A DNA stretch of 64,000 nt from Tremella fuciformis (lineage: Eukaryota > Basidiomycota > Tremellomycetes > Tremellales > Tremellaceae), in NCBI GenBank assembly GCA_032768795.1, contig CP136493.1, positions 310,001 through 374,000 of the forward strand. The letters are read 5' to 3'. The notes under the pieces are model-generated. The model had not been told where the DNA came from, made no database searches, and saw only the letters and a program-made list of their open reading frames with translations. A program made the position numbers and the translations under genes. Positions 7,329-55,221 of this stretch are shown one piece after another (position 1 is the stretch's first letter; each line of letters starts with the position of its first letter).

Positions 7329-10300
7329 TCATGTCATTGCCAGGTGCCTGCTGCGTACGTTGATCACCACATCGATAGCCCAATCGACCAAACGAGCCGC
7401 CCAGCGCGACTGCCATTGCCTCATAGCATCAATGCCATCGGCTGTCGATCCAGCATGATCGTCGCCCCACAGACCGCTTGTTGTAGGGTACTCCGCGGTC
7501 TCGTATTGATCGTCAGTTGTCTTGCTCGGCGCCTCGATTTTCGGAAGTGGATGGCGCTTGTCATACCAATCGAATCCATTCAAGACGAGCAGGCCCAGTC
7601 TGTCCACAAAGGCGGACGGTATCTGAACATTGGAATGTCCAGCGGGGACAAGGACATGGAAGAAGAATTGCAATGCTTGAGTTTGCGAGGCTTCGATCGG
7701 CCCGAATGTGGACCGGTCCATGGGCAAAAGCTGTCATTCAGCATGGACCTCCTGTCTTTTGGCTTGGCGATACTGCGCCAGAAGACGGTGGGCAGAGTGG
7801 AAGGCAAGCAAGAAACGCACCACAGCGTGTACATGGAATGTCCATCGACCACCTGCAGTGGGACTTGGCTGTCCCGCGTACAGTATTCGCGAAAAAATCT
7901 GAATCATCAGCCAAGTGGGTAACCCCCCGACTCTGTGACCGACCTGTTTCGCGTCGGCGCCCGAGAATGGCCGCCCCTCGACATCAGCCGAACGCGACAA
8001 TGGCGATGATGTTTCGGACGGAGGAGTGAAGATGCGTACGGCGCGATCGTGAAGGTCGATCAACACCGGCAAAACGCGTCCGTAAAAGATTATCACGCCC
8101 CAGTAGATGTCTGGCATTGATTCGGCGGATCTGCTCGCGGCGTAGCCGAGCTGCAGATGGTTTCGAATACATTGGTCGTGATGTACAAACGGGTTGTCGT
8201 GGGGTACGATTGGGTCCGTTATCGGTGCGTGATCCGAGACAATCCCCAAAGGGGAGTAGATCAGGCTGACGGCGCGAGCACCATCCCGAGAGTCGCCCCA
8301 AGATGACATCGAGTTGCCATACAGGAGGGAGAGAAGGGCAAGCAAGGTCCAGAAACGGCTCCACTGGGCCGAGAAGGGGTTGGGAGAATCGACGCCACCG
8401 ACATGGCTTGGGCCACTACAGAACCAATGAGGCATCGATAGCTCGATTGCGCGGCGGCGCTTCATGGCAGGCGGCGAAGCAAGCGCAGCAAAGAACAAAT
8501 CAGGCGGGAGCGAGATGTCCAGCGCAGGCGCAATTGGGCTGGAAGCAAGAAGGGCGAACGCCGAGACGATATGCACCCCAATACCAAGGGGGACCTCCTC
8601 GTTACGTGCGCTGTCAGTGTCCGTGCTGCGTTCTCCGACGATACCGAGCCAAAATCGAAATGAAAGCGGATCGATTTCCTGCTCGTTGCCGACGGAAGCA
8701 AGTAGCCTCGAGATGAGTGGCGCTTCGTCCCATCTGCACTCTGGATCCGCTGTCTCTGGCCCCAACGTCCCGCTGCGATGAGCTTTTGCTGCAGATGCCA
8801 AACGTGACCAGGAGTCTGAAGTTGCAATGTTGGTAACGGATGGCACGCGGTCGCCAGTCGTAACGTCATAGGCATGGTCGGAGATGGCACGCCTAGAGGC
8901 AACGCCGTTGGGAAACAGATCGACCAGTGTCTCAATGGGAAGATGCAGGCCATCAGCCGAAAGACGCAGTGTGCGATTCTGGCGAGGGCCGTGATTCGTA
9001 GCATCGGCAACACTGGTATCGTCGATATTCAGGCCATGGTCGATCCAGAGGACACCGAGTTTGATGAGTATGGCGTGAGATGGCCGGGGCAGTTGAGAAG
9101 TATCAGATAGGCCGTCGATCTCGTCACCCAGTGGTAAGGGCAAGGTGACATCGAAACCCGCGGATGGGCATTCCCTCAAAAACTGTTTCACTGGGCCCGG
9201 TATCTGCTAATAAGAACTGAACGTCAAAGACCAAATCTGATGGCGTTGAAGCGGATGGCAGGATGGATGTTTCGACTTACTTGTGAAGAGTCCAGGCTCG
9301 CATCATTCGCAATACTTCTGGAGCCAGCGATGCCCCCTTGACTGCCCCACTGATCTGAAGCGCCGGCCAACGCGTTCCGCAGATCATCGAGTACTTGCCG
9401 AGTGTGATGATAGACCTTGTCGGATGCTCGATCTGCCAGCTGGGTTACGAGCTGGCGAATCGTCTCGCGAAGGGAAGATTGACATGGCCCGCTATCCGTA
9501 TGATCCTCCAGATCCGGTTCAACGAGGTCTCCTGGATGGATTGTGGCAACGCGTCTCAGCTGCGAGAAAGCGGTTTGGAGTATCTCTTCGGGAAGAGATC
9601 TCGGTGAGCGATCGGTGTCACGATGATGTGGAGGACTGGACATGTTCTGACGGTCAACTGTCGTGCCGCTCTCCGATATAGTGACATACCCCTGCACCGT
9701 TGCTTTGCTCGACTGCGCTGGGCATGTCGCTGGCGGTTCGTAGTCGTTTAGTACGGCTGCTTCCGGACAGCTGAGCCTCAGCAGGCCGCTTGCGATTCTC
9801 AGTTCGCAAGCCGGCCTGCCCAGTCTCCCAAGTAACATAGTATCCGGGTCGCACATTGAAGTCTCTGACCAGAGCCAACCATCTCGACATCTCTTCCACC
9901 GTCGGGTCGCTCTCTTCACCTCGGTCCTGGTCCTCCCTTTCGCTCGTCTCAGTTCCAGCTTCTGCGCCTGATACGCCTCCTTCCGCGACTCGACCACCTC
10001 CTCGATTTCCTGCTCCGATCACTGCTCCTGCCGCGCCCGGCGGGCTTGAGTGGGCTGCCATTACAGCACTTGCTATACTGTCCGCGCTTCCCCTCCAGCA
10101 TGCGCTGACAGGTACTCTGATTTGTTCTCCATCCGGGGTGCGTATTTTAAACAAGCACGTCGTTGCAGTCTTGTCCGGCATAGCATGAGCGCACATGACG
10201 CACGGTCCGAGCGGAATGACATGTTGAATGCCGCCGGCCACCGAGGGATCGTCGAGTGCAGAGGCGCGAGGGGCGAGGGTGTGGACATAGCAGCAGAGAA

Positions 10301-11059
10301 ATCCCTTTTTCTCACATCGTTCACATCGACGTATAGGCCTGTATTCATGAGCTTGAGATTGAAAGCACATGAGATCCGGGCTCACAGTGCGAGGGATTGG
10401 AGGAGCTTTCTCGGCGGTAGCGACCCAGCGTTCTCCGGCGTCTCCTCAGACTTGCCCGAAGTCTCGGCGCCTTTCTCGGTCCGATCGAGCACCTGTCGCC
10501 TCCAGCCATGTCTGTCCAGCGCCTCTGATAAAGCCCGGAGTTGTTTGGCGCTGGCCGTTTCCTTGGAACCAGAATGTTTCCCCGTGATGCTGCCGCCATG
10601 ACCTGCGCTGTCGATCGAGCTATGGGTATTGGCGTGCTCCGGTTCGCTCGTGAGAGGTACATCGCAAGGCAGGACTGGATTGTCGATATCGACAAGCCGC
10701 AGAAAGGGCAGATGATGTATGTTTGGCGGCAAGAGAGCGGGCGAGATAGCCGGCGTGCGTGACGTCGAGGTGTCTAACGGACTCGCGATAGTCGAGACGC
10801 CGGCACCCGACACGCTCATAGCATGATTTCCGATGCGAATGTGTCCCTCGACCGGAGAGCCAGGGTCGGTCCACCCGGGAAGGTGAGACCACGGTACATG
10901 GTCGACGAGGGGTCCATGAGAGGAAGACATGATGAGACGTGTCCCGTGTCCGACGAGTTGACCAGAGTGTAAACAGCTGCGAAGTACTCTACGAGTAGTT
11001 ACGGCTTCAAAGACGAAGACAAGAGACTCGGCCACGTCACGTGTCACCCGCGTGGTCAT
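7329..11059 (-). CDS. Zn(II)2Cys6-like transcription regulator, 1158 aa, five exons
   Basis: Minus-strand exons are 11059-10386, 10338-9690, 9646-9281, 9206-7821 and 7730-7329. All introns are GT-AG (47, 43, 74 and 90 nt) and the total of 3477 nt closes in phase at TGA 7331-7329. The Ser/Pro-rich N-terminus is followed at residues 230-286 by a cysteine cluster, CX2CX6C then about 30 residues then CX2CX11C, with basic residues around the first half (RRCERCEKKGFLC). This is a loose variant of the fungal binuclear zinc cluster, whose loops are normally shorter. The C-terminal 600 residues look like the helical middle-homology region of fungal regulators. A nuclear transcription factor role is inferred. 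The first ATG could also be Met 44 (10930). It is head-to-head with the gene at 11158. Confidence 0.7.
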
Positions 11060-11157: not shown

Positions 11158-12455
11158 ATGCTCGGTCACGAGAGGATCGGGTCCAACAGCAGTATCGCAC
11201 CCTCGTCTACTCCGCCAGCTCGATATACCCTGCCAGCGCCAGCCCATATTATCAGCGACGTAGAGTTGTTACGTGCGACTGACGGAGACGGCCTATTCTT
11301 CCGTGACCTCGACGCCAGCGATGATGACGACCAAGTCGACCACCACGTCGAATGCCGCTCAGTGGTCGACAAGGAACAAGGAGAAGAAAAGGGAGAAGAA
11401 GGGGAAGAAACAAGGTTGGCCGAGGATATCGAGGTCGAGAGACCCCGGCGTCACTCGTTTGTTGCTCCACCGAACACAGACTTTCGTCATCTTGAAGGGT
11501 TGACATGGACGCAAGGCACTCCTCGCCGCAGCAATGACCACGGCGACATCGAGTGCGACATTGAGCCTTTCGCTCTCGACTTCGGTCCGAATCCCGGCAA
11601 GGGCATCGAGCTCGTCTCACCAAACTCTTCCCTCCTCGTCTCCCGGATCCTTGGCCAGGATCGTCGAGACACACTGCCCGATACGAGCACAGCCGTCCAC
11701 TCTGCTGCACAAACTGATTTCGAGGTCGACGGAGAAAGCAGCCACCGGTCAGCGTCTAACTCCGAAGGTCATATCAAGGTGTCTCCAACGGGAGACACCG
11801 GAGACACCACAAATCGTCACCCTCACCTCGGAATACACAAGGTCATATGTAGCAACGCCGTTCAGGAGAAACTGGTGGGTCACTCGTCGACTTCGTTCCA
11901 GCTCTCACTGACTCGCAGCTGCGGCGGATGAATGGCCATCTTGACAAACTCGTCCACGCCAGGCAAAGGTATAGCCGAGACTGTGCGGGGCCCAAGGCCG
12001 AGACGAGCAGAAAGGCGCTCGAGGCCAAAATGGACAAGTGCATACAACAGGCGTCGGAGGCGCTGATTGTCCTACGTAGGTTTCCTCTACTACCTGGTGC
12101 TTGTAGGGCAAATGAGCATCCCTGACGCTCAGGCCACCGCCCCAGCTCGTCAAACGCATGGCATCATCGCGGCGGCTTCCTCCTCGACCTCCCTTTGTCC
12201 TACTTTATTGCCAACTCGATGATATTTGATCGCAACGTACGAGATGCCCAGGCCGACCGGAGGCGAGAGACAGTCAAGCTAGAAGCTGAGGTCTGGTCAA
12301 ACCTCGCTAGGGCTTTGGACCTGGTCCACAATAACGGACAGCTCTACGATAACGATGTGGTCGGCGAACTTTTCAGGGTACGCGAGTGGAGATGGGGTCT
12401 CGGCGCAGCAAGCGTGAATCCGAAACACGCACTGAGCTCACTGGTGGCCCTTTGA
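11158..12455 (+). CDS. Acidic/coiled-coil protein, 398 aa, three exons (unknown function)
   Basis: Exons are 11158-11874, 11919-12075 and 12133-12455. The introns (44 and 57 nt) carry GTGGGT or GTAGGT donors, CTGAC branches and CAG acceptors, and 1197 nt close in phase. Residues 1-240 are acidic and low-complexity (runs of Asp and Glu near 60-100). Residues about 240-390 form two helical coiled-coil segments rich in Lys, Glu, Asp and Arg. No catalytic motif is visible. The layout (disordered acidic region plus short helices) resembles the proteins at 20,369-21,982 and 18,951-20,013. It shares its promoter with the zinc-cluster regulator, which suggests a functional link, but that is inference. 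Confidence 0.75.
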
Positions 12456-12728: not shown

Positions 12729-15700
12729 ATGAAGTCCAAACTCACCGCCGATCTGAAAAACAGGTGGTCGGCTGGCGAGATTCACACCACAGTGGGATCT
12801 TGTCTGGTAGGTCATACAACCCCCGCCCGCCTCTTGTCTGTTGCCTCGCGTCCAACGTCGTCTATCCGCATTCCCGTGGCCCAGCATCCGGCTGACAAGC
12901 AGTTGATTGTCAACCCACTTAAAGAGCTTGCCATTTGTGAGTCGCCTCCCCACCAGTGCCCCCCCAAAACTGCCAGACGGCACGCTGATTCTTTCCCAGA
13001 TGGAAAAGATTACCTCGACGCCTTTGCCCCTGGGTGCAAGGTCGGACACCTCGATCAAGTCCAGAGAAACCAGCTCGCTGTCGACGCCACCAAAGACCAT
13101 ATATTCGCCGTCGCGCGGGATGCGCTTGACGAGGCGATTCTGACCGAGAGGAACGGCACAATAGTCTTTCAAGGAGCTTCGTGAGTCGATTACTTGTCTT
13201 TCAACCTTCTTCTTCCTCGTATTCTGCCAGTCAGTGGGTGCTGGCTGACCTTGCAGTGGCGCAGGCAAATCGCGCAACTTTGCTCTGGTCGATGCGTACT
13301 ACGACTACCACATCCCTCGCGCCCAAAGTCAAGGTGTAACCCCCAACACGGTCGACACGCTCACAAACGCCTCGCTTCTCGTCGACTTCATGACTGTTGC
13401 CTCGACAAAACTCAACCCGCTCTCGAGTCGAGCAATCAAGTGCACCTACGTGAGTCCTCGCATGCATCCGGGGGCACTGTATCACGGAGGGGTGGGGCAA
13501 GAGGACAAGGCTGACCCTATAGAGATACATCGATCCGGCCTCGCGTCGTACCGTGGCTACTACCGTTGATATCCACGGTATCGAACACTCTCGCCTCTTT
13601 GCGTGCATCCACCACCCTGCCGGCGACCAATCTTGCTTCGACATCATGCACCAGTTGGCCGCGTGGGGCTCTACCCTTCCGGCTCTCATGATCAAACACG
13701 GCATCGACCTGCCGCTGGTAGTGCCTACCGAGGCTCTGAGCCTCGGGCATCAAGGTTTCGCCCTTGTCAAGGGCTGTGCCAACGACAACCTTCCCCTGGG
13801 CCTTCAGGAAAACCGCCTGGATGGGTTCGTGCGCGCTCTTCGCGCCACCCATTCCCCAGGAGCGGCGCACAAAATTATCCAGGCTCTCTTGGGAGTGTTA
13901 TTCCTCGGCAACTTCTCCGCTCGTGACGTGGACGACAAGAATATCAATTATGTTGCGGATTTGTGGGGAATCAAGGCGTCTGAACTGAGCAGCACACTCC
14001 GGGAGACTCTGTTTGGCGGCGTCGAGAAAGTGCGCAAGCCTGTCAATGAAGTGCTCGCTGTCCGGGACGGAATGATGCTTACCGTTTATCTGGCGGTCAT
14101 CCAAGTGAGCGTCGTGGACATGGATCGTTGACGTGGGCTGACTGCAGGGCATCTTCAAGCAATGCAACGACGTCTCGGTTGGTGGGCAGGATCTTTCCCA
14201 GTGTAAAAAGATTGGGATGCTGGACATTGTCAGTAGCTCGTCCGACCTAAACGGCTTGAATCTGACATCGGTAGTGTGGTTATGAAATCTTCGACATGGT
14301 GCGCGAAATCCCCCCCCCTTCCCCCCTTTTCCGTGTGCGAAGAAGAGGGTGGCCAGCGGCGCATGTACCTTGAAGTCCAATGCTGATATCAGAATACGCA
14401 CGGCTCCCTGATCATAAACATGTGTAACGACGAGCTCAGCAAGCTTGTGAGTTGCAGCTCGGCGGGAAACGTTGGCTCACGTGCAGTACTGTGAAGACCT
14501 CTATCAAGTTAGTCTCCGCTTCAGCGCTCCCGTCTCTACCCTTCTGCCTGTCACCCACAGGTTCGACTGATCTCACGTAGCAACACCGCACCTCGAACTT
14601 GGCAGCTGACGTACAGACCGCATACGAAACGTTAAAAGCGGATTCGGCCGAGATTGACCCGGCATTGGAGTCGGCACTTCTCGAACCGCGGCAATATCTT
14701 GGCAGGCTTGCAGACGCCAACGACAAATGGGCGGAGAAGCTCAACGACGCCGCCTTGAACCGGAAGAACACGGGGTTGGAAACACTCTGCAAAACCCTCG
14801 GTGACCTGGAACGAGACTTTATTCGCCGAAAAGAATCATTGGGTGACGGTGGCGCGGTCGTGGTCGAGCAGCAACACGCGTGTGACAAGGCCTCGTACAA
14901 GCTGGAACCATTGCTGCTCAGCAATATCCACCGGTCCGACTCGCGCGCCGTCGAACTTCTCACCTCGGCCGGTCTATACGCCTTCTCCGCCTCGCCTGAA
15001 GCTGCAACTGGCAGTCGCAACCCGGGCAACACTGCCAAGAGTCGTTCCTTGCTGGCAAAGGCCATGGCCGACTACAAATCCCTGACCAAAAAACTGTTGT
15101 TGGATAGCAGTGTCCGCTGGGTGATGTGCGTCACACCGCGCAACGCGGCCGATCGACATGCTGCCCGTTCCCGTCCAGGCGGCAGAGTGCTGAAGGGCGA
15201 CAACGATGACGTAGTGCAATGGTCCGATCAACACGTTTACGCGCAATTGGACCGGAGTGCTGTTGCGGTTGCTGCCAAAATGCAGGATAGCTTGTTGCCA
15301 GAACGATTGCTTCTCTCGGGTTTCGCTGCTGCGTAGGTTTTCTACATATCCCAGACGACCACATCTGATGCCGCAGATTCCCGGCGCTGTGGAAGGAAAG
15401 CCGAGATAAAATCCCCGAGGCGCAACCGAATGCAAGGGTTGTAAATGACATGTTGACAGCCCATTTGCCAAGTCGAGCTCGGACCCCTTCATCTTTTGCC
15501 TCCTCGGCTCGGCCTACGATGGCTACCGCGACACTCGGTCGAACCATGGCTTTCATGCCTGCTGGGTCGATCGCGCGCCTCACGCGAGCCGACAAGCAGC
15601 TGCGCGAGGACGAGGCCCAGCGGGGACAAGCGCAGTCCCAGAATCGATCCTGTCCGGAGCAGAACGCCTTCAACAAGAGCAAGCGGGGCCGGCCGTCGGT

Positions 15701-17342
15701 CAAAGAATCGCAGCAGAAGATCAAGCCGGTCGCGTCGCACTTGCAGGATGAGCTACGCAGAGTATTGCTGCAGCGGTTCAGGGAGACCGACGACCTGCCT
15801 CACGGCCCAAACGTACTCGCCGAGCTGGTCGCAGTGAAAGGTGACGAACGAGGTGCTCAAGGGGGCAGTGAGGAGGCGAACGCCGAGGACCGAGATCCGC
15901 CTGTGCCCGAGGATGGCTTGATCGACACCAGCGATATGTCTCTTGAGACTTTGAGTGAGAGTACGTCCATTTGCTTTGAGTCATTATAGGGAGCTGACGA
16001 GCCAGCGGGTGTAGGCGAATTCTCCACACCCATTCCCAAACGGGCCCGTTTCGCCTCTCTCTCTTCCCCGCTTGATTTCCATCGAGGGCTTGATGCCACA
16101 TCCACACCAGCGATCTTCCAATCGGACCAAGATTCGGCTCGCGGTCGAGGTCCGTCTGTCCACGACAGACCGTCAACACCGTACAACCCTCACACCGCTT
16201 CGGCTTCTCCGGCTTTACCCACCCCGACTACGATGCTAGAGGCAACCCCGTCTCCCTCATTGTCGGCCCTCCGCTCCGGCAACGGGGACGCCGATCAAAC
16301 ATTCTTTCACGACGGCCCGCCAGCCTTTTCCGGCGATCATTCCGGTTGGTTCGACAACGATTATGACGACGAGATCCGCTCCAAACTCGAGAACACTGTG
16401 CAGAGCTTGAAGGCGGATCTGGCTCGGGAACTCGCCCAGAAGTCGTTGGTGGAGGAACAGAACCATCGCCTGGCCCGACAGTTGGAGCAAGCCAGAAGCG
16501 AGGCGTGTGTAATGGAGGCAAGGCTCAACAAACAGGCGGAGCTGCATGCTGGCGAAATCAAGACGGCGAAAGCAGACCTGTCGAACGAGCGGGCAAGAAT
16601 GACAAAAGTGCTGCATTGCTCGATGACAATCTTACAACGCGTACGGCCTCCGACCATCGAGAAGTCCCCCAGCGGAGAGGCGTATCGGCAGATGCAGGAC
16701 GTGCAAACACTGGCAAAGGCCGTCAAGGGTACGATGGACGTGTTCAGCGAGTCGGGAAGAGGCATAACGGAGACGCTCCGTCCGCTCAAGGTCCTCGTAG
16801 AGGCTGCCGCAGAAGTAAGTATCGCTGGGCAGTTGCCGAGGTGGGCGTTGCGCGACGCTGACATGCAGTCCGGTTCTGGTTTGTTGTCCATCGGCGACAG
16901 TCTTTTCTTCATCGCAACCATCCATGCGCTGCGCGAGGCCTTCACATTTCCCGGAGTCACCGACGATGTGGGCGCCGCCGCTCTCTCGAAAGCTCTGGAC
17001 TTGGCCAAAGATGACGTCATCCTCGACACATCGCTCAAAACGGACAAAGCCTGGACCGCGTCCTTTTCGACGACACGCTACTCGGATCCCGATAGGATCC
17101 TCGCGGATCTACGGAGATCCCTCGTGACGCTTGGCCAGCGCCGGTACCTGTTCGGAGTGACAGTGAGAGATTGGGAGAGTGTGGAGACGAACGTGAAGCG
17201 CACCATGCACACACGATGGGCCAACACCGGCGGTAACCAGGACGCGCGCAAGCTGGACCAAGTGTTTGCAGAGGCGAAGTCTACGGTCGAAAAAGACTTG
17301 AAAGGTACGAGGAGCAACGGAAAGGGCAAGCTGGGTGTATAG
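12729..17342 (+). CDS. Divergent myosin-motor protein with coiled-coil tail, 1285 aa, 13 exons
   Basis: Exons: 12729-12806, 12903-12936, 13000-13180, 13257-13449, 13523-14104, 14148-14228, 14275-14298, 14393-14446, 14487-14507, 14581-15332, 15377-15960, 16015-16814, 16869-17342. Every junction is GT-AG and 3858 nt close in phase. The motor starts almost at Met1. The NPLKELAIYG segment matches the NPYK..PIY of myosins; the P-loop is GASGAGKS (96-103), switch I NPLSSR (151-156), switch II DICGYE (382-387), and the actin-side VMCVTPRN lies near 598. These residues support ATP binding. No IQ motif follows the converter (about 640-690), and no chitin-synthase domain or membrane segment is present. 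A Ser/Pro-rich linker leads to a coiled coil at about 978-1060. Fungal chitin-synthase myosin domains are the closest type I can name. The region between switch II and the actin-side loop is poorly conserved, so activity is uncertain. Confidence 0.8.
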
Positions 17343-18950: not shown

Positions 18951-20013
18951 TCACTCACTTGCTTGCTCAACCGAGACCGAGACCGAGTGCGACTCGAGCG
19001 GGACCCAGCGGAGTCGACCTGAAGCGATGAAGCCACGCAACCTGCTCAGCTCGGATCGGATGATTTGACCGTCTACATCCTCGCCACCATCACCAACAAC
19101 ACCCTCTGGGCCTGCGCCTCGGCTGGGGCTGGGGCTGGGGCCGGCGGTGCCAGTCGGGCTCCAATGCGTCTCCAACCTCGCCATGGCGACCGCGATATCG
19201 TTGATCACGGCGGCCTGCGCGTCGAGCCGAGCCAGAATGGTCGCCGTGAGGTCCACAGCCTTTACGCCATCATCGGTCTTTGCTTCGGTAATCGTATGGC
19301 CAGTGGAAACGTCACCTACAGGCCGGGCGGGGGCGGCACGCAGTTCAAGGGCATGGCGGCGCTCGAGACGATCGATCTCGGCCGCATGACCGCGCACGAC
19401 GGCGCGCAACTTGGCCAGTTCTGCGCGGGCCTCGTCCAGCTGGTCTTGGCGAGGTCGGGTGGATTCGTTGAAGTGGACCAACTGGCGGAGGCCGACGACA
19501 TTGGTGTCGACGGCGACGGTATCGGCATCGGCATTGGGATTGGGATTGGTGATCGAGGAAGAGCGGCGTGACGTGGAGACTGTCGAGATGGACGACGAGC
19601 GGGATACCGAGCGGGACAGTGGCTCCTCTGCGAACGACACGATGCTTGTTCGACGAGAGAGGGATCGTGTCAGAGGGGCGGGCGCGGGCGCGGGGTCTGG
19701 GATTTCTGAGGTGAGGTTCCCGGCAGGGCCGACGGGGAGGGCGGCTGGGGCTGGGGCTGGGGGCGCGCCGGTGACGGACGCTCGACTGGTTGATCAGCAA
19801 AGGTCGAAGGTGGTCAAAGGGCCGGGCGGGCACGAACACGTACGGTCCGTACGAGTACTTGATCTCATGACTATTCTCGTGACCGTCTTGGTCCGTGTGC
19901 CTCACAGGTTTGGGCGTGGGCGTGAGCGTCGACAAGGAGACTGAACGGCGCGGGATCCGACTTGGTCGGGGTCGTCGCGCCGTGGGGGTCTTGTCCATGT
20001 CGCATTCACCCAT
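18951..20013 (-). CDS. Ser-rich coiled-coil protein, 334 aa, two exons (unknown function)
   Basis: Minus-strand exons 20013-19844 and 19785-18951, with a 58-nt GTACGT..CAG intron and CTGAT branch; 1005 nt close in phase. The N-terminus is basic and Pro/Ser-rich, followed by a Pro-Ala stretch and a serine cluster (SRSVSRSSSISTVSTSRRSSS) typical of phosphorylated disorder. A coiled coil (about residues 180-225) and a second helical part follow. The family is not recognised. It is head-to-head with the gene at 20,369. Confidence 0.65.
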
Positions 20014-20368: not shown

Positions 20369-21982
20369 ATGACAGCCAGAGCCACAGCCACGGCCACAGC
20401 CACAGCCACCGTCACCGCCGACAGGTGGGCGATAGACACAAAGGTGATCACCATCGAACTCCGCGCCGCTTGCGACAAATGGGAGGTGGGCCAGGTGCGT
20501 CCCGTCCCGTTTCCCTTTCGAGTCGAGGAGGTCCAAGCGGGGGCAGAGGCATGGGCACGCTGACGCACAGGAGTATCAAGAGTACGCTGTCGAATCGCTC
20601 AACGAGCTCGCTCTCGAGCTCGCAAAGCTTGCCGATAAATGTCGGAAGATTGCGGGGGCGCCAACTCGACGGGCGGTACCCCGAGTCACAGATACGGCTC
20701 ATAGACCTGGTGTTCGCGGCGTAAGCTCCTCGATCGCCCGCTCGGCTCGGTGAGAACCGCACTGAGCTTCAGGTCAAATCCAGGGGTGGGCCCGCCCATA
20801 CGCCTCGATCAGTTGCTCCAAACGCAAGTTCTCGAAAGCACAGAGATCGCAGGCAGATCGCGCTCCAGTCCATCCCTAAGACCAAGATCTACCGGACGCG
20901 CTACACGGCGGCCGTGACCCGGGCGTCGAGTGGCGAACCGCTCTTGCTCAATCTGCCGGCTCGCCCTGGTACCGATGCTGGCCGAGCTACCGGTTCCTCT
21001 GCCGCCAACGAAGCCCGCGCGAAATCGTACAACCAGAACATGAACCAGACCGAGTTGGTGAGCCGATCCATCTGCTCATGTACCCGTCAGAACTGACGCC
21101 CAGCTCGCCAGGTACAACTCGACATGTGTTGCGCCGATCGTCCGGCTTCGCGCGACGCTGAGGCACAACCAGCAGCGAGCCTCTTCGCAATCTTCCGTCC
21201 CCACGCGCAGTCCAGATGACGTCGGTCGGCGCGCCGATGGCGACGAGGAAGGGGACGGTGGTCGGATTGGCCGAGGCAGGGTCGATCGCTCGATCGCGGA
21301 AATGGCAAAGACGATCGAGCGATTGGTAAGAGGAACCAAGGAGCTGCGGGCCGAGCTAGCACGTAAGCTCCCTCGTACTCGACCTCGAGGCTGGGATGGG
21401 TAGCTGCTCACACGGTCAGCCTTTCGACCCAAACGTCTCGGACCGAGATGGCACTTGAGTACCGGCCTCTGCTTCGATCTTCCGCGCGCGTGGGCCGATC
21501 ACAAACTGGCCAAGCTGTCGCAGTTGGGCCGCTCGATCAACTCGGCATCAGATGTCGCCATCGCTCAGAACCTTCTGATCCGAGATCGCACTATCGGACG
21601 GCTTGAGAAATACCACGAGAGAGTCTTGTGGAAGACGGCCGAGTACGCCGCGTGGCGTGCGGGTGCGGATGCCGAGCTGTCATTTATCAAGGGGCATATC
21701 GAGAGTGCCAGTAATGCAGAGGAGGAGGGGACATTGAGCGATCTCTGTGGCACGGGCACGGGCACGAGCGAGGAAGATGGGGATCAAGCCGAGTCTGAGG
21801 AGGAGCACACGGTCGGAGCTTGTTCGGACAGCGATGACCCTATGGAAGGTGAGAGTGTCGCACGGAGCGATGACGAGTACGAGGATGAGGATGAGGATGA
21901 GGATGAGGATGAGGATGAGGATGAGGATGAAGATGAGGATGAGGATGAAGGTGACTCAGAAAGCGACGACGAGCTTGCTTGA
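20369..21982 (+). CDS. Coiled-coil protein with Asp/Glu repeat tail, 460 aa, five exons
   Basis: Exons 20369-20494, 20571-20720, 20773-21057, 21104-21362 and 21420-21982. All introns are GT-AG with CTGAC/CTGAG branches, and 1383 nt close in phase. An Ala-Thr repeat opens the protein, followed by a helical region, a basic middle part, another helix (AEMAKTIERLVRGTKELRAEL) and a globular-looking segment. The C-terminal 70 residues are acidic and end in a perfect Glu-Asp alternation encoded by a GAGGAT hexanucleotide repeat (about 21,880-21,950). Such tails are common in histone- or nucleosome-binding proteins, but no such domain is recognised here. The stop codon lies one base before a retroelement LTR (21,984), so the original C-terminus may have been longer. 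Confidence 0.7.
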
Positions 21983-33736: not shown

Positions 33737-34705
33737 ATGGCGGATCAGGCTTCCCTCGCTCAGATCCTGCAACAACTCGTTGCCATCGAGGCTCGTCGAG
33801 CCAATTCACCCACTCCCTCGACCAACGCATCATCGAGCGAGCCCAAGGCCAACCCGCCCGACACTTTCGATGACTCTAAGCCGGAGAAACTCGAAGGATT
33901 CCTCATGCAATGCAACATCGTCTTTCGCCTACAGCCTTCGAAGTTTACAGAGGAGTCCAAAGTCATCTACGCCATCTCCTTCCTTAGGGGCTTCGTTCAA
34001 GACGCTATCCAGCCTCTCGCGTCGGGAGAAGAACTTGACGAGAAGATCAGTAGCTTTCAGAGGCTATCGAGATACTTGAGGGACAACTTCGGGGATCCCG
34101 ACATCAAGGGCACCGCTCAGAGGCGATACTTCGACTTGAAGCAGACCGGATCAGCGGCAGAGTACTTCGCGAAGCTTAGGGAGTACCTGGCGGTCTTGGG
34201 ATGGGAAGCCAACGAGCAAGCTAGAGCTAGGGCGCTTGAAGGCCTCTCAGACAATCTTCGAGACGAGGTTGCTTGGACCACAGTGGAGCTGGAGACCTTC
34301 GGAGAGCTTCAGTCCTATGTCATCAAGTTGGACAACCGGCTCAGAGCAAGGGAGGCCGAGAAAAAGGCCGAGGTCAAGCGGTACGAAGAAGCTCGACGAC
34401 GGCCAGCCACGACTACCCAGGGGCAAGTTCCTCCCCCTGCCTCGTCGACCTACCGCCCTCTCCCGCCAATCCCGTCGGCGCGCCCTTCACCAGCCCCTAG
34501 TGGCCCGCTTGGTTACAGGCCAACGCCTCCTGGAGGACTCGACCCAGCGGAACGCCAGAGGAGGAACGAGCAGCGTCTCTGCTACCGTTGCGGCGGGGTC
34601 GGACACTTCGCCAATGCCTGTGTTCCCGGGCAACGACCTCCCGTTCCTCGAGGCAGCCCTGCACCCGGCCGACCTATCGTCAAGCAGGAGGACCCAAAAG
34701 CTTGA
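33737..34705 (+). CDS. Gag polyprotein, 322 aa, gypsy (435-bp LTR family)
   Basis: The ATG at 33,737 opens an uninterrupted frame. Residues about 40-190 match the retrotransposon Gag helical domain (PPDTFDDSKPEKLEGFLMQC, then a YFAKLREYLAVLGW segment). A Pro-rich linker follows, and a CCHC zinc knuckle CYRCGGVGHFANAC at about 286-299 binds RNA. The frame stops at 34,703-34,705. Two codons before the stop, CCCAAAA in the correct phase could shift ribosomes by -1 into the pol frame. Gag is the only intact frame of this element. Confidence 0.85.
   Translation: MADQASLAQILQQLVAIEARRANSPTPSTNASSSEPKANPPDTFDDSKPEKLEGFLMQCNIVFRLQPSKFTEESKVIYAISFLRGFVQDAIQPLASGEELDEKISSFQRLSRYLRDNFGDPDIKGTAQRRYFDLKQTGSAAEYFAKLREYLAVLGWEANEQARARALEGLSDNLRDEVAWTTVELETFGELQSYVIKLDNRLRAREAEKKAEVKRYEEARRRPATTTQGQVPPPASSTYRPLPPIPSARPSPAPSGPLGYRPTPPGGLDPAERQRRNEQRLCYRCGGVGHFANACVPGQRPPVPRGSPAPGRPIVKQEDPKA
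34693..34699 (+). promoter_or_regulatory. Candidate -1 frameshift heptamer CCCAAAA
   Basis: In the gag frame it reads C CCA AAA, the canonical X XXY YYZ arrangement, four bases before the gag TGA. A -1 shift leads into the pol frame, which however meets a TGA at 34,723. Confidence 0.5.
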
Positions 34706-37650
34706 GGGACGCTGAGAACATATGAGAGGTCCAGCGGCCCCATCAAGACATCCTCTCGGCCACCTCCCCTCCCCATTCACCTCCCAACCCCCCTGTATCA
34801 CAATCACCTTTAATCCCGAACCTCGACGAAGAAGCGAAAGATGAGAAGGCACTGGTTGCCACGGACGGAATAGCTAGTGATGAGGAGGCATGCATTCGTG
34901 GTGAGGTTTGCTGTTTAGGCAGAGAGCAGGCTGTCGTGTCAGGAAGCGTCAATCAAGTCGACGGGGTGAAGGTGCTGCTCGACACCGGGGCCACTGGTAA
35001 CTTCGTCGACTCTGTGTTCGTTGAACGGCATCACATCCCCTGTTACCCACTCCCTCGACCCCGGCAACTCCTCCTCTTTGACGGTAAACCAAGCTCAGCA
35101 GGACAAGTAGAAAAGGGAGTGACGGGAACAGTAAGAGTCCTAGGCGGTGAAGGAAGGGAAGAGTTAGGTGTGACAACGTTGGCAGGAGCGGACGTGGTGT
35201 TGGGATATGACTGGATGAAGGAGAACGGTGTGATATTGGATGCTGGAAGGAAGAAAGCGACAAGGAAGAGGACAGGCGGGAAGAAGACGGATCAGGAGGA
35301 CGGACCACAGAACCTCGACGAGGTTTCGTGACTATCAGGAACATTGGAGACTAAGGCGGAAAGGCGACAAGGTAAACGAAGGAGCAGGCGATCGAAGGCG
35401 AACAGCATTGAACTCCCATTCAACCAATGGGAGCAGAACCAGGGAAATACGGTCGAGCTATGCGGCACAGTGACCGAGGAGTTGAGCGAGAAAGAGGCAT
35501 ACATCGACGTCCTACCCGACTATGACGAGTACGAACTCAGCCCAGAGGAGGAAGCAGCTGTGCAACATCTTGTCCCGGAGCGGAATCACGAATACCTCGA
35601 GGTCTTCCATCCTCGACGAGGGGTAGAGACGCTTGCTCCAAGTAGAGAATACGACCTACGCATCACGCTTAAACCTGGAGCCGACCTACGAGTGGCCCCG
35701 CTGTATAGCTTGAACCCAGATCAGATGGATGCACTCGACAAGCTGCTGGATCGAGAGAGAAAGGCTGGAAGGATTCGACCATCGAACTCGCCCTATGGCT
35801 CACCAAGCTTCTTCGTACCAAAGAAAGCCCAAGGAGAACTGAGAATGGTTGTCGACTATCGCAAGCTCAACGAGATGACGGTACCGGATGCATACCCGCT
35901 ACCCCTGATATCCCAAGTGACCGACGACCTGGCCAAGTCGAGATACTACACGAAGCTCGACTTGCCGGGAGCATACCAGTGGCTCCGGATGGCTCCTGGA
36001 CATGAGAAGTTCACAGCATTCCGTACCCCTCGAGGAATGTTCGAGTCACTGGTGGTGCGAGACGGACTTCGGAACGCGCCGAGCGTGTTCCAACACTTCT
36101 TGAACGAAGTCCTGCACGAATTCCTGGGAAAAGGGGTCATCATCTACATCGACGACATTCTCATCCATGCGGAGAACCTCGAGGAACTTAGGAGATTGAC
36201 TAAGGCGGTGCTGGAGGCGTTGCGGAATGCTGGGCTGTTTGTGAAGGCGTCTAAGTCGGAGTTCGAGCAGACTAAGGTGAAGTTCTTGGGCTTCATCATC
36301 TCGCACGAGGGCGTCGAGGCTGACAGTGGGTATGTCGAGGGTGTTCGCAATTTCCCTACCCCTCGAAACCTACACGAAACTCGACGGTTCCTCGGTCTTG
36401 CGAGCTATTACTGACGCTTCGTACCGCAATTCTCCAAGCTTGCTGGGCCTCTCTCGCACCTCACAAGGAAGGATATCGACTTCGATTGGGGAGATGGACA
36501 GCAGTGGGCGTTCGAGGAGATCAAGAGGCGAATGAGCGAGGCACCAGTGATCGCTCACTTCAACCCGACGTTCGAGACTATCATCCAGACAGACACCTCG
36601 GTCTATGGATGGGGGTTCATCATTTTGCAGGTGAACTCCTTGACAGGACAAGAGCACCCTGTTGCAGTCAAGTCGGGAGCCTTCTCAGGAGCGGAGCTCA
36701 ACTACACCACCACGGAGAAAGAGTTCCTTGCAATTGTTATGGCCTTTAAGCGACGTCGGCACCTCCTTCTGCAGGTTACCTTGACGATCTTGACCGACCA
36801 TCTCAACCTCACATACTGGATGGAGCCACAGAAACTCAGCCCTCGAGTTGCAAGATGGGTGGATACCCTGGCTGGCTTCTCATACAAGATCGTCTACCGA
36901 CCAGGAACCAAGGCAGCCTACCTGGATGCATTATCGAGAAGAGCCGACTACATTCCACAGGGCAAGAACGCAGAACCAGAGCTAGTCCAAGCCCTGCCAA
37001 GCTTTGACAAGGAGAGTACGGTCACATCCAATCTGAGCTACATGCCGCGGTTGCTGGTGGAAGACAAGGAAGGAGGAGATGACGAGGAAAGAGGAGAAGA
37101 CGAGGAAGGAGAACTGAGGGGATTGTCTCGAGGAGAATTGAAGGAAGGGCAACGCGGAGATGAGGACTTGAAGGACACATTGGAGGAGATTGGAGAGCCA
37201 AGAGGGGAGAAGAACATCACAAAAGAGGAGAACCCAAAGGCATGGTCACTGGCAAAGAGACTGGGCCTCGACGAGGCAAGCAAGATCAAGTTTGACAATG
37301 ATGGTCTACTCAGGATAAATGGTCGACTCTACATCCCGGACATCAAGCAGGCAAGAGTTAAGGTCATGCGGGATCACCACGAGGGGCAATTGGCTGGACA
37401 TCCCGGAGTTGCAAAGATGCTGGAGCTGGTTAGGAGGGAGGACTGTTGGTTAGAGCTAAGGCGGGACGTGGAGAAGTATGTGCGAGGATGCGCAGTATGT
37501 CAGCGGTGCAAACCGGTGCGTCAGCGTCCCCATGGACTGTTACACAGCCTGGAGATAGCTGACAGACCATGCTCCTCGATTTCCATGGACTTCATCGAGG
37601 AGCTTCCGGCCAGCTCGGGCTTCAACTTGATCCTTGTCCGACGGAAATAG
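34706..37650 (+). pseudogene. Pol of the gypsy element: protease, RT, RNase H, truncated integrase
   Basis: One frame carries aspartic protease (LLDTGATGNFVD, about 34,975), reverse transcriptase with YIDDILI (about 36,145), RNase H (IQTDTSVYGWGF) and the start of integrase: a HHCC zinc finger (GHPGVAKM through CAVCQRC) and the first catalytic Asp in SMDFIEELP. TGA codons at 34,723, 35,329 and 36,412 interrupt it. The third stands where the family has Arg in the YY-R-F motif. The integrase frame ends at 37,648-37,650 before the second catalytic Asp, so the catalytic core is gone. No chromodomain is seen. Confidence 0.85.
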
Positions 37651-39950: not shown

Positions 39951-41765
39951 ATGAGGGTCAGCACGCTGCGGCACACGACGCGCCGCGATCGGGCCGACTT
40001 GTACGACAATGACGGTGACCATGAGTTTGAGGAGGACGAGGACAAGGAGGACGAGGATTGCTTGCCCCGCGGAGAGGGGGAGGGTCAAGGGGTACACCTC
40101 GCCGCTCAAACATTAGTCTCGCTGTCCGTCGATCCATCTCCTAGGTCCACCTCGACCATCTCGGGCCATGGAGAATCCCATCGACCCCATCGACACCCGC
40201 TGCAGCCCAGACGCGAGATGCTTTCTTCCCCGGCCTCACGCTCGCGTTCGCCATCGTTCACACCTGATCCCAACTCGTCGACATGCACTCCACTCTGTCG
40301 GTTCTTGACCGATAATCTGACGCGCGCTGACTGGCAGCCATATCGCCGAGGTTGTATCGCGTGAACCATGCTCCGCCTCCGATCAACGCGGCGAGACGAA
40401 AAGGCGCCGCAAGAGACGGTGCAAAGATCGAGCGAGAGGTAGGTACGCTCCCCAATCGTCTTCGTCTTGACCAACCCTGCCCCGGAGACTCTTGACAGGC
40501 AAGGTCAATCGCTGACTTTGGTCTAGAGAAGCCTTCTTCAGTCTCCCGACGATCATCTCGAACTTCATCCCTCGGAAGCGTGCAGACGGTGTCACGATGC
40601 CGGATGGCGCTGCCTCATCGTCAAGAGTCCATTTCACGCCATGCAGAGCTGTCAGACGTGCGGACGCGCAGCCTGTGACTTGAAGCGACGATGGCCGGGG
40701 CTCGTGCAGCATCCGGGCCTGGCCGCTCTGGACCAAGCGGCGGTGCGTGGTACAGGCAGCTTGACATCGGAGGGCTCGGGCGGAGAGATGCTGCCGCGGT
40801 TGACAGAGGGAGGTGACAACAGCCGCGCCCCCTTGCAGAAGGTGGGCAGGAAGCGGAAAGCGGTGCATGTGGACAACGCTACCCCGCTCGAGACCAGTCC
40901 GACTCGGACCGGCGGCTCCCCCGACAGTGTCGGGTCGCGGTGCGAATCGCGGTCCACTCTTTCGCCAACGCCAGCTTCCTTTTACAACCACGATGATACC
41001 ACAGTGTCGCTGCCTCTGCCTACTGCCGCCCGACACCACGCGACTGCTAGCAGCGAGTCTGCAGGGGACAAGCCATCCGGTGATCCGGTGGGAGAAGCGA
41101 ATTCAGCAAACAACACGACGCCAAGCTACACCCTTCCTCCACTCCGGACCGATGAAATTCGTCTTCCCTCACCCTTCGGTGATACAGCAGATAGACCGCC
41201 AACATCCCACCGATGTCTTTCCACTCGGTCTCTCGCCGCCACGATCACTGGCTCAGGCACACCTTGCGCATCCAAAGCCAGTGAGCACGAAAATACCTGG
41301 CTCGATGCACTGCTTGCCGATCTACCGCGTTCGAAAAGATGGAACCGTCCGGCTGCTCCAGTGCTCACCGAGGCAGACTGCCAAAAGGCTTACGAGGAGG
41401 GCGATGTCTTGACATACGCAGCGATCGTGTGGAATAGTCTTCCCTCATCTTTCGTTGATAAGGCAGATAGACCGCCAACATCCCACCGATGTCCATCCGA
41501 TACGAATACCCCTTCCACTCGGTCCCTCGCCGCCACGATCACTGGCTCAGAGACACCTTGCGCATCCAAAGCCAGTGAGCCCAAATATACTTGGCTCGAT
41601 GCACTGCTTGCCGATCTACCGCGCTCGAAAAGATGGAACAGACCGGCTGCTCCAGTGCCAACCCAGGCAGACTGCCAAAAGGCTTACGAGGAGGGCGATG
41701 TCTTGACTTACGCAGCGATCGTGCGGAAGTGGCGATGTGGGAGAAGTGACGGGCTTGGAGGATAA
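39951..41765 (+). CDS. Zn(II)2Cys6-like protein with 92-aa tandem repeat, about 561 aa, three exons
   Basis: Proposed exons 39951-40296, 40338-40438 and 40527-41765 close in phase (1686 nt). The second intron (GTAGGT..TAG) is firm; the first has a weak GTCGGT donor. The N-terminus is acidic (EFEEDEDKEDED). Residues 168-199 form CX2CX6CX12CX2CX4C, close to the fungal binuclear zinc cluster (last spacing usually 6-8), implying DNA binding. The C-terminal half has two copies, 276 bp apart and in frame, of a block containing TWLDALLADLPRSKRW and DCQKAYEEGDVLTYAAIV, a Leu/Asp-rich motif that could be an activation or interaction region. Transcription regulator is inferred. Confidence 0.65.
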
Positions 41766-41986
41766 ATGGTCAGCGAAGGTACGCCCAGAAGCGCCATTCC
41801 ATTCACTCTGTGAGTAGACTTCTCCGTCGACCCCTCATACGCGACCGGCGAGACGAAATGTCGCCACACCGATTCCCACCCTCCTCCGAAGAACTGGTCC
41901 GTAGCTGACGCACAGTGAGCAGCAAGCTCATCGAGGAGGATGACGCCTTGATTCTTGGATTCTATCTCGAACCCTTGCCGCCCTAA
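41766..41986. other. 3' flank of the zinc-cluster gene
   Basis: No recognisable feature. A minus-strand frame crosses it but has no conserved motif. Confidence 0.35.
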
Positions 41987-50302: not shown

Positions 50303-51271
50303 ATGTCCGACACCGTTACCAATACCCAAGATGAGGTCTTGCAGGAGATGCAGGCGCGCATCATCCAGCTTGAAACCATGCTACAGACCCAGACCATCAA
50401 TGGTCCACGAGCCAAGGAACCCAAGGTCACCAATCCACCGCCTTTCAGTGGCCGTAAGGATGGGGCCTATGAGTTCATACTCAAGTGTGACATGGTCTTC
50501 AATGTTCAGCCTCAGACCTATGCCAGTGACAAGGCAAGGATTGCCTTTGTCACCAACTTGCTCAAGGGAGAAGCCTATCAATGGGTAATGCCTTACCTCC
50601 TTATGGACCATGACGCACAGCCAGCATGGGTCCAAACCTGGATCAGCTTCAAGGAGGAGTTCAAAAAGGTTTATGGCGACTCCAACATCATTGAAACATC
50701 CCGTCGCAAGATCCAGTCCCTCCGCCAGACCGGTTCCGCCACCACCTATCTCACGGAATTCCGTTGCCACTCAGCCTATCTGCATTGGGGTGATGAGGCT
50801 TTACGTCATGCCTTCTTTGATGGACTGAAGGAAGACGTGAAGGACAAGCTCCTCACTCCCAACAAGTTTAAGGACTTCAATGCCCTGGCAAACGATGCCA
50901 TCCAGTGGGATGATCTTCTCTTTCAGCGCAGGAGAGGTTATTCCAATATCCGCCATCCCGCAGCCCGAGTTACCACCCATGTCACCAATCAAGTCACCCG
51001 TCCTCAGTTCCAGCGCACTCCAGTCACCACCACAACCAGCTCTTTCACTCCAACCCCAATGGAGATTGATGCTGTCCATCCACGCTTCACACCTCTCACC
51101 GCTCAGGAGAAGCAATACCGCTACGACAACAAGTTGTGCCTTTACTGTGGCAAGCCTGGCCATACAGCTTTCGCTTGTCCCAACCGGCCAGCTATCAGGG
51201 CCAACAAGGTGAACGCCACAACTGCCACTACCAATCCCATCAAGTCAAAAAACACCAAGCCCCTGGCCTAG
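50303..51271 (+). CDS. Chromovirus Gag, 322 aa
   Basis: The ATG at 50,303 follows directly after the nested LTR and its TSD. Residues 30-200 form the Gag helical domain (PPPFSGRKDGAYEFILKCDM and the FKEEFKKVYGD segment); the CCHC knuckle CLYCGKPGHTAFAC at about residues 277-290 binds RNA. The frame ends at TAG 51,269-51,271. AAAAAAC at 51,247-51,253 in the correct phase should give a -1 shift into pol, which overlaps gag by over 100 bases. Length and order are normal for the family. Confidence 0.95.
   Translation: MSDTVTNTQDEVLQEMQARIIQLETMLQTQTINGPRAKEPKVTNPPPFSGRKDGAYEFILKCDMVFNVQPQTYASDKARIAFVTNLLKGEAYQWVMPYLLMDHDAQPAWVQTWISFKEEFKKVYGDSNIIETSRRKIQSLRQTGSATTYLTEFRCHSAYLHWGDEALRHAFFDGLKEDVKDKLLTPNKFKDFNALANDAIQWDDLLFQRRRGYSNIRHPAARVTTHVTNQVTRPQFQRTPVTTTTSSFTPTPMEIDAVHPRFTPLTAQEKQYRYDNKLCLYCGKPGHTAFACPNRPAIRANKVNATTATTNPIKSKNTKPLA
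51247..51253 (+). promoter_or_regulatory. -1 frameshift heptamer AAAAAAC
   Basis: Read in the gag frame as A AAA AAC, a canonical -1 slippery site, 15 bases before the gag stop. After slippage the next codon is CAC of the pol frame. Confidence 0.7.
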
Positions 51272-54200: not shown

Positions 54201-55221
54201 CATGCGACTTCACGGTATACCTCAAGACATAGTATCGGACCGTGGCCCAGTATTCAACTCTCAGTTTTGGCGAGCCTTTGTCAAAGGCTTAGGCATCACA
54301 CCCAACTTCAGTACAGCATTTCATCCCCAATCCGATGGTCAAACCGAGAGAGTCAACCAAGTATTAGAGGCATATTTACGGAATTATTGCAATCACAATC
54401 AGGACAATTGGACATCACTCTTAGACCTTGCAGAGTTCAGCTACAACAACGCTGTACACACATCAACACACCAGTCACCATTTGAAGCCAACTACGGTTA
54501 CCATCCAACATCACCTTCAACACTCCCAGCTCCAGCCTTGGTCCCAGCAGCACAGTCCTATCTGGAGGAGCTGCAATCAGTACAAGAGGGCCTCAAGGAG
54601 AATCTCAGCCGCTCCCAGCAATCTCAAGCCCGTTTTTACAACCGGAAAATCAAGGAAATCATGAGTTCAGACGACATTCCCAAGTTCAAAGTAGGAGATC
54701 AGGTGTTCCTCAACCGGAAGAACATCACCTCTCTTCGCCCATCACTCAAGTTAGACCAGCGCATGCTTGGTCCCTACACCATCATTGGCACTACATCATC
54801 ACCACTTGCTTTCAAGCTTGACCTACCGCCAACTCTGCCAATTCACCCAGTATTCCATGTCAATCTCTTGGAACCAGTACGCCTTGGACATCCCGGCCAG
54901 CAGCAAGATCCCCCTCCCAAGATAGAAATCCAGGGAGAAGAGGAATATATTGTGGAAAGGATTCTCAATTCACGCATCAGTGAAGATGGTGGATACGATT
55001 ACCTTGTCCATTGGAAGGATTACTCCTCCGCACATGACTCATGGGAACCATGGGAGGAGGTCTACCAAACAACGGCTTACAAGCACTTCAGGCGGCAACA
55101 TTTACACGATAAGACTCAGCACTTCCCGCCACACTCAGCTCACCACAACAAAACAGATGCTCCAGCAGCACACACAAGTCAGACACGTACATCAGCCAGG
55201 CTCAGAGGACTTCGCCTTTAG
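51254..55221 (+). CDS. Chromovirus Pol, over 1300 codons, open
   Basis: The pol frame is open from within gag to the stop at 55,219-55,221. Domains in order: aspartic protease (MIDSGATGNFI, about 51,442), reverse transcriptase (VYLDDILIFS, about 52,708), RNase H (IETDASDFAIAG, about 53,150), integrase with HHCC finger (about 53,850-53,970) and DD35E (SMDAIV; VSDRGPVF; DGQTERVN), GPY motif (LGPYTIIG, about 54,760), and a chromodomain at the C-terminus (EEYIVERIL...LVHWKDYSSAHDSWEPW, about 54,937-55,060) that would steer integration to modified chromatin. All catalytic residues I can check are present and no stop or frameshift occurs. Confidence 0.95.

What the first reader, a model, noticed from the sequence alone, without database searches (positions are those of the whole stretch)
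12729..17342. Neckless myosin-like motor without a chitin synthase domain
The phased 13-exon model gives a motor domain with P-loop GASGAGKS, switch I SSR and switch II DICGYE retained, but no IQ motif and a poorly conserved region where myosins carry the relay/lower 50K part. The tail is a disordered linker plus coiled coil. Known fungal motor-domain proteins are classes I, II, V and the chitin-synthase fusions; this arrangement fits none I can name.
Basis: partly seen in the sequence, partly recalled or inferred. Interest (0 to 1): 0.75.

Follow-up and report, generated by a model that had tools for sequence, protein, structure and literature searches.

The report
Lever-less myosins on accessory chromosomes
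The gene makes a myosin head with an intact-looking ATP pocket but no lever arm to generate movement; it is one of at least ten such strange genes found in a jelly fungus, and all ten sit on the fungus's dispensable 'accessory' DNA, which suggests these DNA pieces carry motor-derived proteins of their own.

Summary

The larger finding is the context. All eight contig sizes seen match Tremella fuciformis Tr01 haplotype A. Besides five ordinary myosins (I, II, V, two chitin-synthase fusions), at least nine further divergent myosin-head genes were found. All ten lie in published accessory chromosomes or compartments (11.4% of the genome), two in each of the five; 0 of the five ordinary myosins does. 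At four of the ten loci a small gene of unknown function lies nearby.

Function is inferred: an ATP-gated, coiled-coil tether serving the accessory DNA fits best but is untested. A 2026 paper names 'motor domains' among the most abundant annotated accessory genes, but its main text never says myosin.

The parts
12729..17342 (+). lever-less myosin gene, 13 exons: 12729-12806, 12903-12936, 13000-13180, 13257-13449, 13523-14104, 14148-14228, 14275-14298, 14393-14446, 14487-14507, 14617-15332, 15377-15960, 16006-16814, 16869-17342; 1276 aa
   Evidence: translation equals P0001 letter for letter; first gene model
12729..15303 (+). motor core, residues 1-645 (aligned to myosin V residues about 81-700); lacks the N-terminal part before it and the converter
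   Evidence: Pfam; model and structure comparison; coordinates
13173..13272 (+). P-loop GASGAGKS (residues 96-103, split by an intron)
13414..13431 (+). switch I NPLSSR (residues 151-156)
14223..14286 (+). switch II DICGYE (residues 382-387, split by an intron)
15115..15297 (+). SH2/SH1 helix region (RWVMCVTPRN ... QHVYAQLDRSAVAVAAKMQDSLL)
15390..16355 (+). polar, probably disordered linker with an AT-hook-like KRGRP (15681-15695) and an NLS-like PIPKRARF (16029-16052)
   Evidence: these two motif types were not found in the nine paralogues scanned, so suggestive only
16356..16622 (+). coiled coil (scored at residues 975-1031; wider limits drawn by eye)
16623..17339 (+). C-terminal part with no detected relative
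11158..12455 (+). 'gene A' copy 1: gene of unknown function with the GFLLDLPLSYF motif, tandem upstream; predicted exons 11158-11874, 11919-12075, 12133-12455
   Evidence: z 6.2 to the copy beside the Chr09 448-kb motor, 0 of 300 shuffles as high; z 0.3 to 1.1 to the other three; leave-one-out HMM E 0.43, weak
20369..21982 (+). 'gene A' copy 2 (LCFDLPRAWADH motif), downstream, predicted 5 exons
   Evidence: leave-one-out HMM E 0.0024

Best explanation
SHOWN: the gene is an intact member of a family of at least ten divergent myosin-head genes in Tremella fuciformis Tr01 haplotype A. It keeps most of the ATP pocket but has lost the converter and lever arm. All ten genes found lie in accessory chromosomes or accessory compartments. 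Its own head is followed by a linker, a coiled coil and an unassigned C-terminal part. INFERRED: it is transcribed, and without a converter and lever it cannot make a normal power stroke. It most likely works as an ATP-gated switch: nucleotide state opens and closes the head's clamp on a partner (perhaps actin, perhaps not), the coiled coil pairs two molecules, and the tail holds a second partner. INFERRED, less sure: because two of these genes were found in each accessory unit (one of the two on Chr04 is broken) and none outside, the proteins serve the accessory DNA itself, by tethering or positioning it (or the nuclei that hold it) in division or in transfer between the two nuclei of the dikaryon.
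For: Fold and pocket: (P-loop 6 of 8, switch I 5 of 8, switch II 4 of 5 invariant residues kept, against 1 of 9 in the converter). Intact: P0001 removes 12 introns exactly; codon log-odds 0.117 against 0.107-0.131 for the five ordinary myosin genes (the codon table was trained on a set that includes the query and these loci). Family: 9 of 9 tested members pass Pfam's cut-off, the lowest at 37.2 against 33.3 (the interrupted tenth was not scanned). Location: 10 of 10 in 3.21 Mb of accessory DNA against 0 of 5 ordinary myosins; 0 of 146 kinase matches there (exon-wise, several per gene, 128 of 203 candidates scored) and 0 of 30 kinesin matches; boundaries taken from PMC10696834 section 8. Published context: accessory regions are nearly identical between the two nuclei and lack BUSCO genes; whole Chr09 is lost in 2 of 33 monospore isolates. 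A linked gene A at 4 of 10 loci.
Against: No function was measured. Location alone does not show that a gene serves its chromosome; accessory DNA also carries cargo genes. Paralogues L009 and L014 keep only 2 of 8 P-loop residues in my models (L038: 0 of 8, but that model starts after the P-loop), so a pocket switch cannot be claimed for all. L015 is cut by a Ty3-type element. The tail of this protein is not detectably related to the other tails. The AT-hook-like and NLS-like motifs were found in this member only. The structure model (pLDDT 63.4) was built on an alignment of true myosins, which favours that fold, and Foldseek's top row has TM 0.66 with rmsd 10.8. Near-identity between nuclei also covers all of Chr04 and some core stretches, so it is not peculiar to accessory DNA.
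Confidence: 0.4

Rival explanations
1. The family is cargo of the accessory chromosomes that serves the partnership with the host fungus Annulohypoxylon stygium, for example as a fast-evolving cytoskeletal or vesicle-tethering factor in hyphal contact.
For: PMC13066641 (section 8 and first part of the Discussion) reports that accessory-chromosome sets match which A. stygium strain a T. fuciformis strain can pair with, and proposes that they set this specificity. Very high divergence (branches 1.3-3.8 changes per column) suits an arms-race gene.
Against: Two copies in each of five separate accessory units is not expected for ordinary cargo. No secretion signal was looked for.
Confidence: 0.2
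2. They are ordinary myosin duplicates that landed on gene-poor accessory DNA and are decaying without a function.
For: L015 is interrupted by a Ty3-type element; L009 and L014 seem to lack a normal P-loop and L009, L010 have lower codon log-odds (0.074, 0.069); retroelements are common in the window and flanks.
Against: The query keeps a 1276-codon frame over 13 exons, codon usage in the range of the ordinary myosins and a spliced record at a divergence at which a neutral frame would be lost; switch II is kept at 3 to 5 of 5 residues in all nine members aligned there.
Confidence: 0.22
3. It is a working actin motor whose lever is replaced by another rigid element of the tail.
For: Head fold and pocket are myosin-like.
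Against: Converter 1 of 9, relay 6 of 16, actin face 7 of 26 invariant residues kept; no IQ motif and a polar, probably flexible linker after the head.
Confidence: 0.08
4. The gene model is wrong and the head belongs to a longer protein such as a chitin synthase.
For: Fungal class XVII myosins are such fusions, and this genome has two.
Against: P0001 ends at the same residue as the genome model; both chitin-synthase fusions found are elsewhere, on C1 and C8.
Confidence: 0.02

Closest known systems
Class XVII myosins (chitin synthases with a myosin motor-like domain)
   Same: Fungal myosin head without IQ motifs; this genome has two, L017 and L018
   Different: No chitin synthase domain; switch II better kept (4 of 5 against 2-3 of 5 residues in five class XVII rows); does not group with XVII in the trees
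Class V myosin
   Same: Head, later a coiled coil; best matches in sequence and structure are class V heads (Foldseek ranks a myosin II first)
   Different: No IQ lever, no DIL domain found, no converter
Orphan myosins (PMC5583752, passages only)
   Same: Unclassified divergent heads; that paper leaves 287 sequences unclassified and sets aside some very divergent ones, ascomycete class-17B among them
   Different: No lever-less family bound to accessory chromosomes was seen in the passages read
'Motor domain' genes of T. fuciformis accessory chromosomes (PMC13066641, section 12)
   Same: Named there, with MFS transporters, as the most abundant among 153 annotated accessory-specific genes; very likely the same family (inference)
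   Different: The main text never says myosin (0 occurrences); sections 7, 8, 9, 12 and the first part of 13, which I read, give no anatomy or count per chromosome; its supplements could not be read here

Membership tests
Myosin superfamily | Myosin_head domain over Pfam's cut-off | tested here: met
   81.8 bits against 33.3
Myosin superfamily | myosin motor core fold | tested here: met
Myosin superfamily | P-loop, switch I and switch II | tested here: met
Force-producing myosin | converter and IQ-type lever | tested here: not met
   1 of 9 converter residues; no IQ pattern; the structural match ends at about residue 645
Force-producing myosin | actin-activated ATPase | not testable with these tools
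   needs protein
Class XVII | chitin synthase domain | tested here: not met
   C-terminus confirmed by P0001
Class V | IQ motifs and DIL domain | tested here: not met
Class I | TH1 and SH3 tail domains | tested here: not met
   Pfam up to E 1 shows no such domain
Class II | IQ motif and long rod | tested here: not met
   no IQ; coiled coil scored over only 57 residues
Accessory-DNA gene of T. fuciformis | lies in Chr09-11, Chr04:1-500 kb or Chr05:1-590 kb | tested here: met
   C4:322729-327342; 8 of 8 contig sizes seen match Tr01 haplotype A, three contigs' sizes were not seen

The most novel reading that the evidence does not exclude
Each accessory chromosome of this fungus encodes its own lever-less myosin-head proteins, with gene A as a linked partner at some loci, as a self-serving partition or transfer apparatus: a myosin-based counterpart of the kinesins known to drive selfish chromosome segregation in maize (recalled).
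Probability: 0.18. Interest if true: 0.93.

Novelty: new variant of a known kind. Interest (0 to 1): 0.77.

Why it matters
How fungal accessory chromosomes persist and spread between nuclei is an open question, and most of their genes in this species have no known relative (PMC13066641 section 12). Here one gene family, recognisable as myosin heads stripped of their lever, was found in every accessory unit of the genome and not outside them. That gives a concrete gene set to delete and test. It also adds a case to the question of what a myosin head does without a lever.

Tried and rejected
Chitin-synthase fragment: rejected. Pseudogene for this copy: rejected by the intact spliced record and codon usage.

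Degenerate kinesins beside the myosins: neighbours at L016 (-), L015 (-), L011 (+) and L013 (+) looked kinesin-like by eye. Pfam up to E 5 gave nothing for the 3 of 4 scanned (L013's was not), a sequence search of solved structures gave one unrelated hit at E 1.7 (L016's only), the four-row profile gave none, and 0 of 30 genome-wide kinesin matches lie in accessory regions. Not claimed. A comparison with this genome's true kinesins could not be made.

KDZ transposon association: no KDZ match in the genome, but the control also rang nowhere. Ulp1-like neighbours: the five Peptidase_C48 matches fall on C1 and C8 only, so this stays an eye impression.

Shared C-terminal tail: leave-one-out profiles find L013 (E 0.002) and, weakly, L016 (0.047) and L038 (0.078); L011 (2.2) falls among shuffles, and the query and L012 are not found.

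Gene A is not seen by an all-against-all BLASTP of frames at E 1e-3, which shows only myosin exons and repeated or transposon-like pieces shared between loci; the case rests on profiles and shuffles. It is not an exclusive partner: a further copy at C10:412.8 kb (profile E 1.3e-6) has no myosin found in the 9.5 kb held. Of the three NLPYAW pattern hits in the genome (reversed control 0), two were by construction. One protein search with gene A found only its own locus and C10:392086 at E 1.4, so copies elsewhere cannot be excluded.

IQ pattern: one paralogue, L011, has a match, in its coiled coil. [KR]GRP also occurs once in the chitin synthase L018; looser K[KR]x[KR] matches occur in L010, L013 and L038.

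One copy of each of two types per region (four of five regions): not significant (about 0.38, counted by hand from the placements). Exactly two per region given ten: 0.008, post hoc and on lower-bound counts.

Orthologues elsewhere: searches with the query and with the L013 protein (motor and tail) found none beyond weak myosin matches. Each scored only the roughly 8000 candidates sharing most words, so distant ones can be missed.
Full report
What is there. The 4.6-kb gene at 12729-17342 (+) has 13 exons with short GT-AG introns. An independent record, P0001, comes from one 5286-base contig and is 1276 aa long; it equals the genome translation letter for letter when exon 2 starts at 12903 and exon 10 at 14617. 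That the contig is a transcript is an inference: several proteins from the same source fill their contigs almost entirely (for example 1893 aa on 5833 bases), which leaves no room for introns. P0001's coding part fills only 3831 of 5286 bases, so a genomic contig with a spliced gene call is not excluded. Codon log-odds (0.117) lie within the range of the five ordinary myosin genes (0.107-0.131), with the caveat that the codon table was trained on a set including the query and long frames of these loci.

What is missing. Against 148 columns that are the same in at least 7 of 8 ordinary myosins, the query keeps 6 of 8 in the P-loop, 5 of 8 in switch I and 4 of 5 in switch II, but 6 of 16 in the relay helix, 7 of 26 in the actin-facing lower 50K part and 1 of 9 in the converter. 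No IQ motif is found, while the same pattern finds 3, 1 and 1 in this genome's myosins V, II and I. After about residue 645 come a polar linker, a coiled coil (scored at 975-1031) and a C-terminal part without detected relatives. The linker has one AT-hook-like KRGRP (132 of 5000 shuffles of the tail have such a motif) and one NLS-like PIPKRARF (304 of 5000); these two motif types were not found in the nine paralogues, though [KR]GRP also occurs once in the chitin synthase L018 and looser basic patterns in three paralogues.

A family. A Myosin_head search of the genome finds five ordinary genes: myosin V (L027), II (L028), I (L029) and two chitin-synthase fusions (L017, L018), named from my reading of the gene models and, for L017, by 82% identity to a Tremella mesenterica chitin synthase. 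It also finds eight divergent loci, L009 to L016. A protein search with L013 adds another at C9:236k. With the query that makes ten. The query itself was missed by the exon-wise search, so ten is a lower bound. Nine of nine divergent proteins tested pass Pfam's cut-off, L012 only just (37.2 against 33.3); L015, cut by a Ty3-type element after about 250 residues, was not tested. In a 25-row tree, six (L011, L012, L013, L015, L016, L038) form one group (100/99); the query, L009, L010 and L014 are unresolved outside the ordinary and class XVII myosins (80/93 for that grouping). Branches are long (1.3 to 3.8) and the program warns of false joins, so deep placement is unsure.

Where they lie. G000 has 28,140,229 bases in 11 contigs. 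The eight contig sizes seen match Table 1 of PMC10696834 (seen as a passage) for T. fuciformis Tr01 haplotype A (8.65, 2.67, 2.49, 2.36, 1.58, 0.86, 0.83, 0.43 Mb; total 28.15); the sizes of three contigs were not seen. [quoted passage not shown] The ten divergent genes lie at Chr04 105 and 323 kb, Chr05 287 and 423 kb, Chr09 236 and 449 kb, Chr10 159 and 692 kb, and Chr11 50 and 213 kb: 10 of 10 in accessory DNA (11.4% of the genome; 3.7e-10 if placed at random by length), two in each unit; ordinary myosins 0 of 5 (Fisher 3.3e-4). Of 146 kinase matches (exon-wise, several per gene; 128 of 203 candidates scored), none lies on Chr09-11, the lowest on Chr04 is at 1,132,554 and on Chr05 at 656,640; of 30 kinesin matches none lies in these regions. 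Both agree with the published boundaries. Copies may be related by duplication, so the chance figures are guides, not tests of independent events.

What is in print. PMC13066641 (abstract and outline, sections 7, 8, 9, 12 and the first part of 13 read; passages) states that among 153 annotated accessory-specific genes the most abundant encode motor domains and MFS transporters. 'Myosin' does not occur in its main text nor in that of PMC10696834. Its supplements could not be read, so its gene list may well contain these genes. In search listings, nothing that describes the family appeared among the rows shown: Tremella with myosin (12 of 44 papers listed), accessory chromosome with myosin (9 of 9), neckless or lever-lacking myosins (3 of 3), and broader terms (15 of 41, 10 of 185 and 15 of 167 listed). 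[quoted passage not shown] PMC3942036 (passages) describes class XVII; PMC5583752 (passages) leaves 287 myosins unclassified.

A linked gene. A small gene of unknown function (gene A; motifs such as GFFLNLPYAWF) occurs beside 4 of the 10 motor loci: twice in the window (11158-12455 and 20369-21982) and once each at Chr05 287 kb, Chr09 448 kb and Chr09 236 kb, in tandem or divergent order. Leave-one-out profiles find the copies at E 1e-7, 8e-6, 0.0024, 0.0048 and 0.43; the last, window copy 1, is weak there but scores z 6.2 against the Chr09 448-kb copy with 0 of 300 shuffles as high, and z 0.3 to 1.1 against the other three. BLASTP between loci does not show it. The Chr09 236-kb locus was fetched for its motor before gene A was seen there, so that link is not circular. 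The other six loci showed none in the DNA held, and one more copy at Chr10 412.8 kb (profile E 1.3e-6) has no motor found in 9.5 kb. All six copies known lie in accessory DNA, but the genome-wide search for gene A was shallow.

How it may work. Shown: an intact head with most of its pocket and no lever, in a family found only in accessory DNA. Inferred: it is expressed, and acts as an ATP-gated clamp, paired by the coiled coil, a tether rather than a motor. Inferred with less support: the tether serves the accessory DNA. PMC10696834 reports that accessory regions are nearly identical between the two nuclei while most core regions differ (all of Chr04 and a few core stretches are near-identical too), and that whole accessory chromosomes are lost or gained; a protein that moves or holds such DNA would fit, but symbiotic cargo (the authors' idea in PMC13066641) or neutral decay of some copies fits part of the data too. 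In my models L009 and L014 lack a normal P-loop, so members may differ in function.

Limits. Paralogue models are my own predictions; N-termini are unsure and some may include neighbouring exons. The count of copies is a lower bound; two further searches did not complete (and repeats). No experiment was possible.

Noticed in passing
L015 (G000:C4:103000-111500), motor exons 105314-106199, Ty3-type gag frame 108397-106296 on the other strand: One divergent myosin copy is interrupted by a Ty3-type retroelement after about 250 residues.
   Followed up: partly
L016 with L037, (-) G000:C11:48874-46094; L015 (-) G000:C4:104562-103350; L011 with L032, (+) G000:C10:156029-158509; L013 with L034, (+) G000:C9:452107-456165: Neighbouring predicted genes with a faint kinesin-like look (TFTFDRIYSS...LVLHGSKHVGKSAWLLG); no database match supports it.
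   Followed up: partly
L010 with L031, (+) G000:C11:217048-220299; L037 (+) from G000:C11:43062: Large predicted proteins that by eye start with a BRCT-like domain and, in the first, end with a Ulp1-like domain; not tested one by one.
   Followed up: no
window 7329-10819 (-) and 39951-41918 (+): Two predicted genes share a CxxC...C zinc-cluster-like stretch (CERCEKKGFLCC / CRRCHDAGWRC); the first had no Pfam match in a shorter model.
   Followed up: no
window 18951-20013 (-): A predicted gene with an SRIPR N-terminus and a coiled-coil look resembles by eye the start of the L016 (-) neighbour; possible remnant.
   Followed up: no
window 33737-37650 and 50303-55221: Ty3-type retroelement frames by eye; the second is a 1620-aa polyprotein model in two pieces.
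   Followed up: no
G000:C10:412779-413147 (+), in L039: A gene A copy (AFWINLPYAWYRHVV; profile E 1.3e-6) on accessory chromosome 10 with no myosin-like gene found in the 9.5 kb held.
   Followed up: partly
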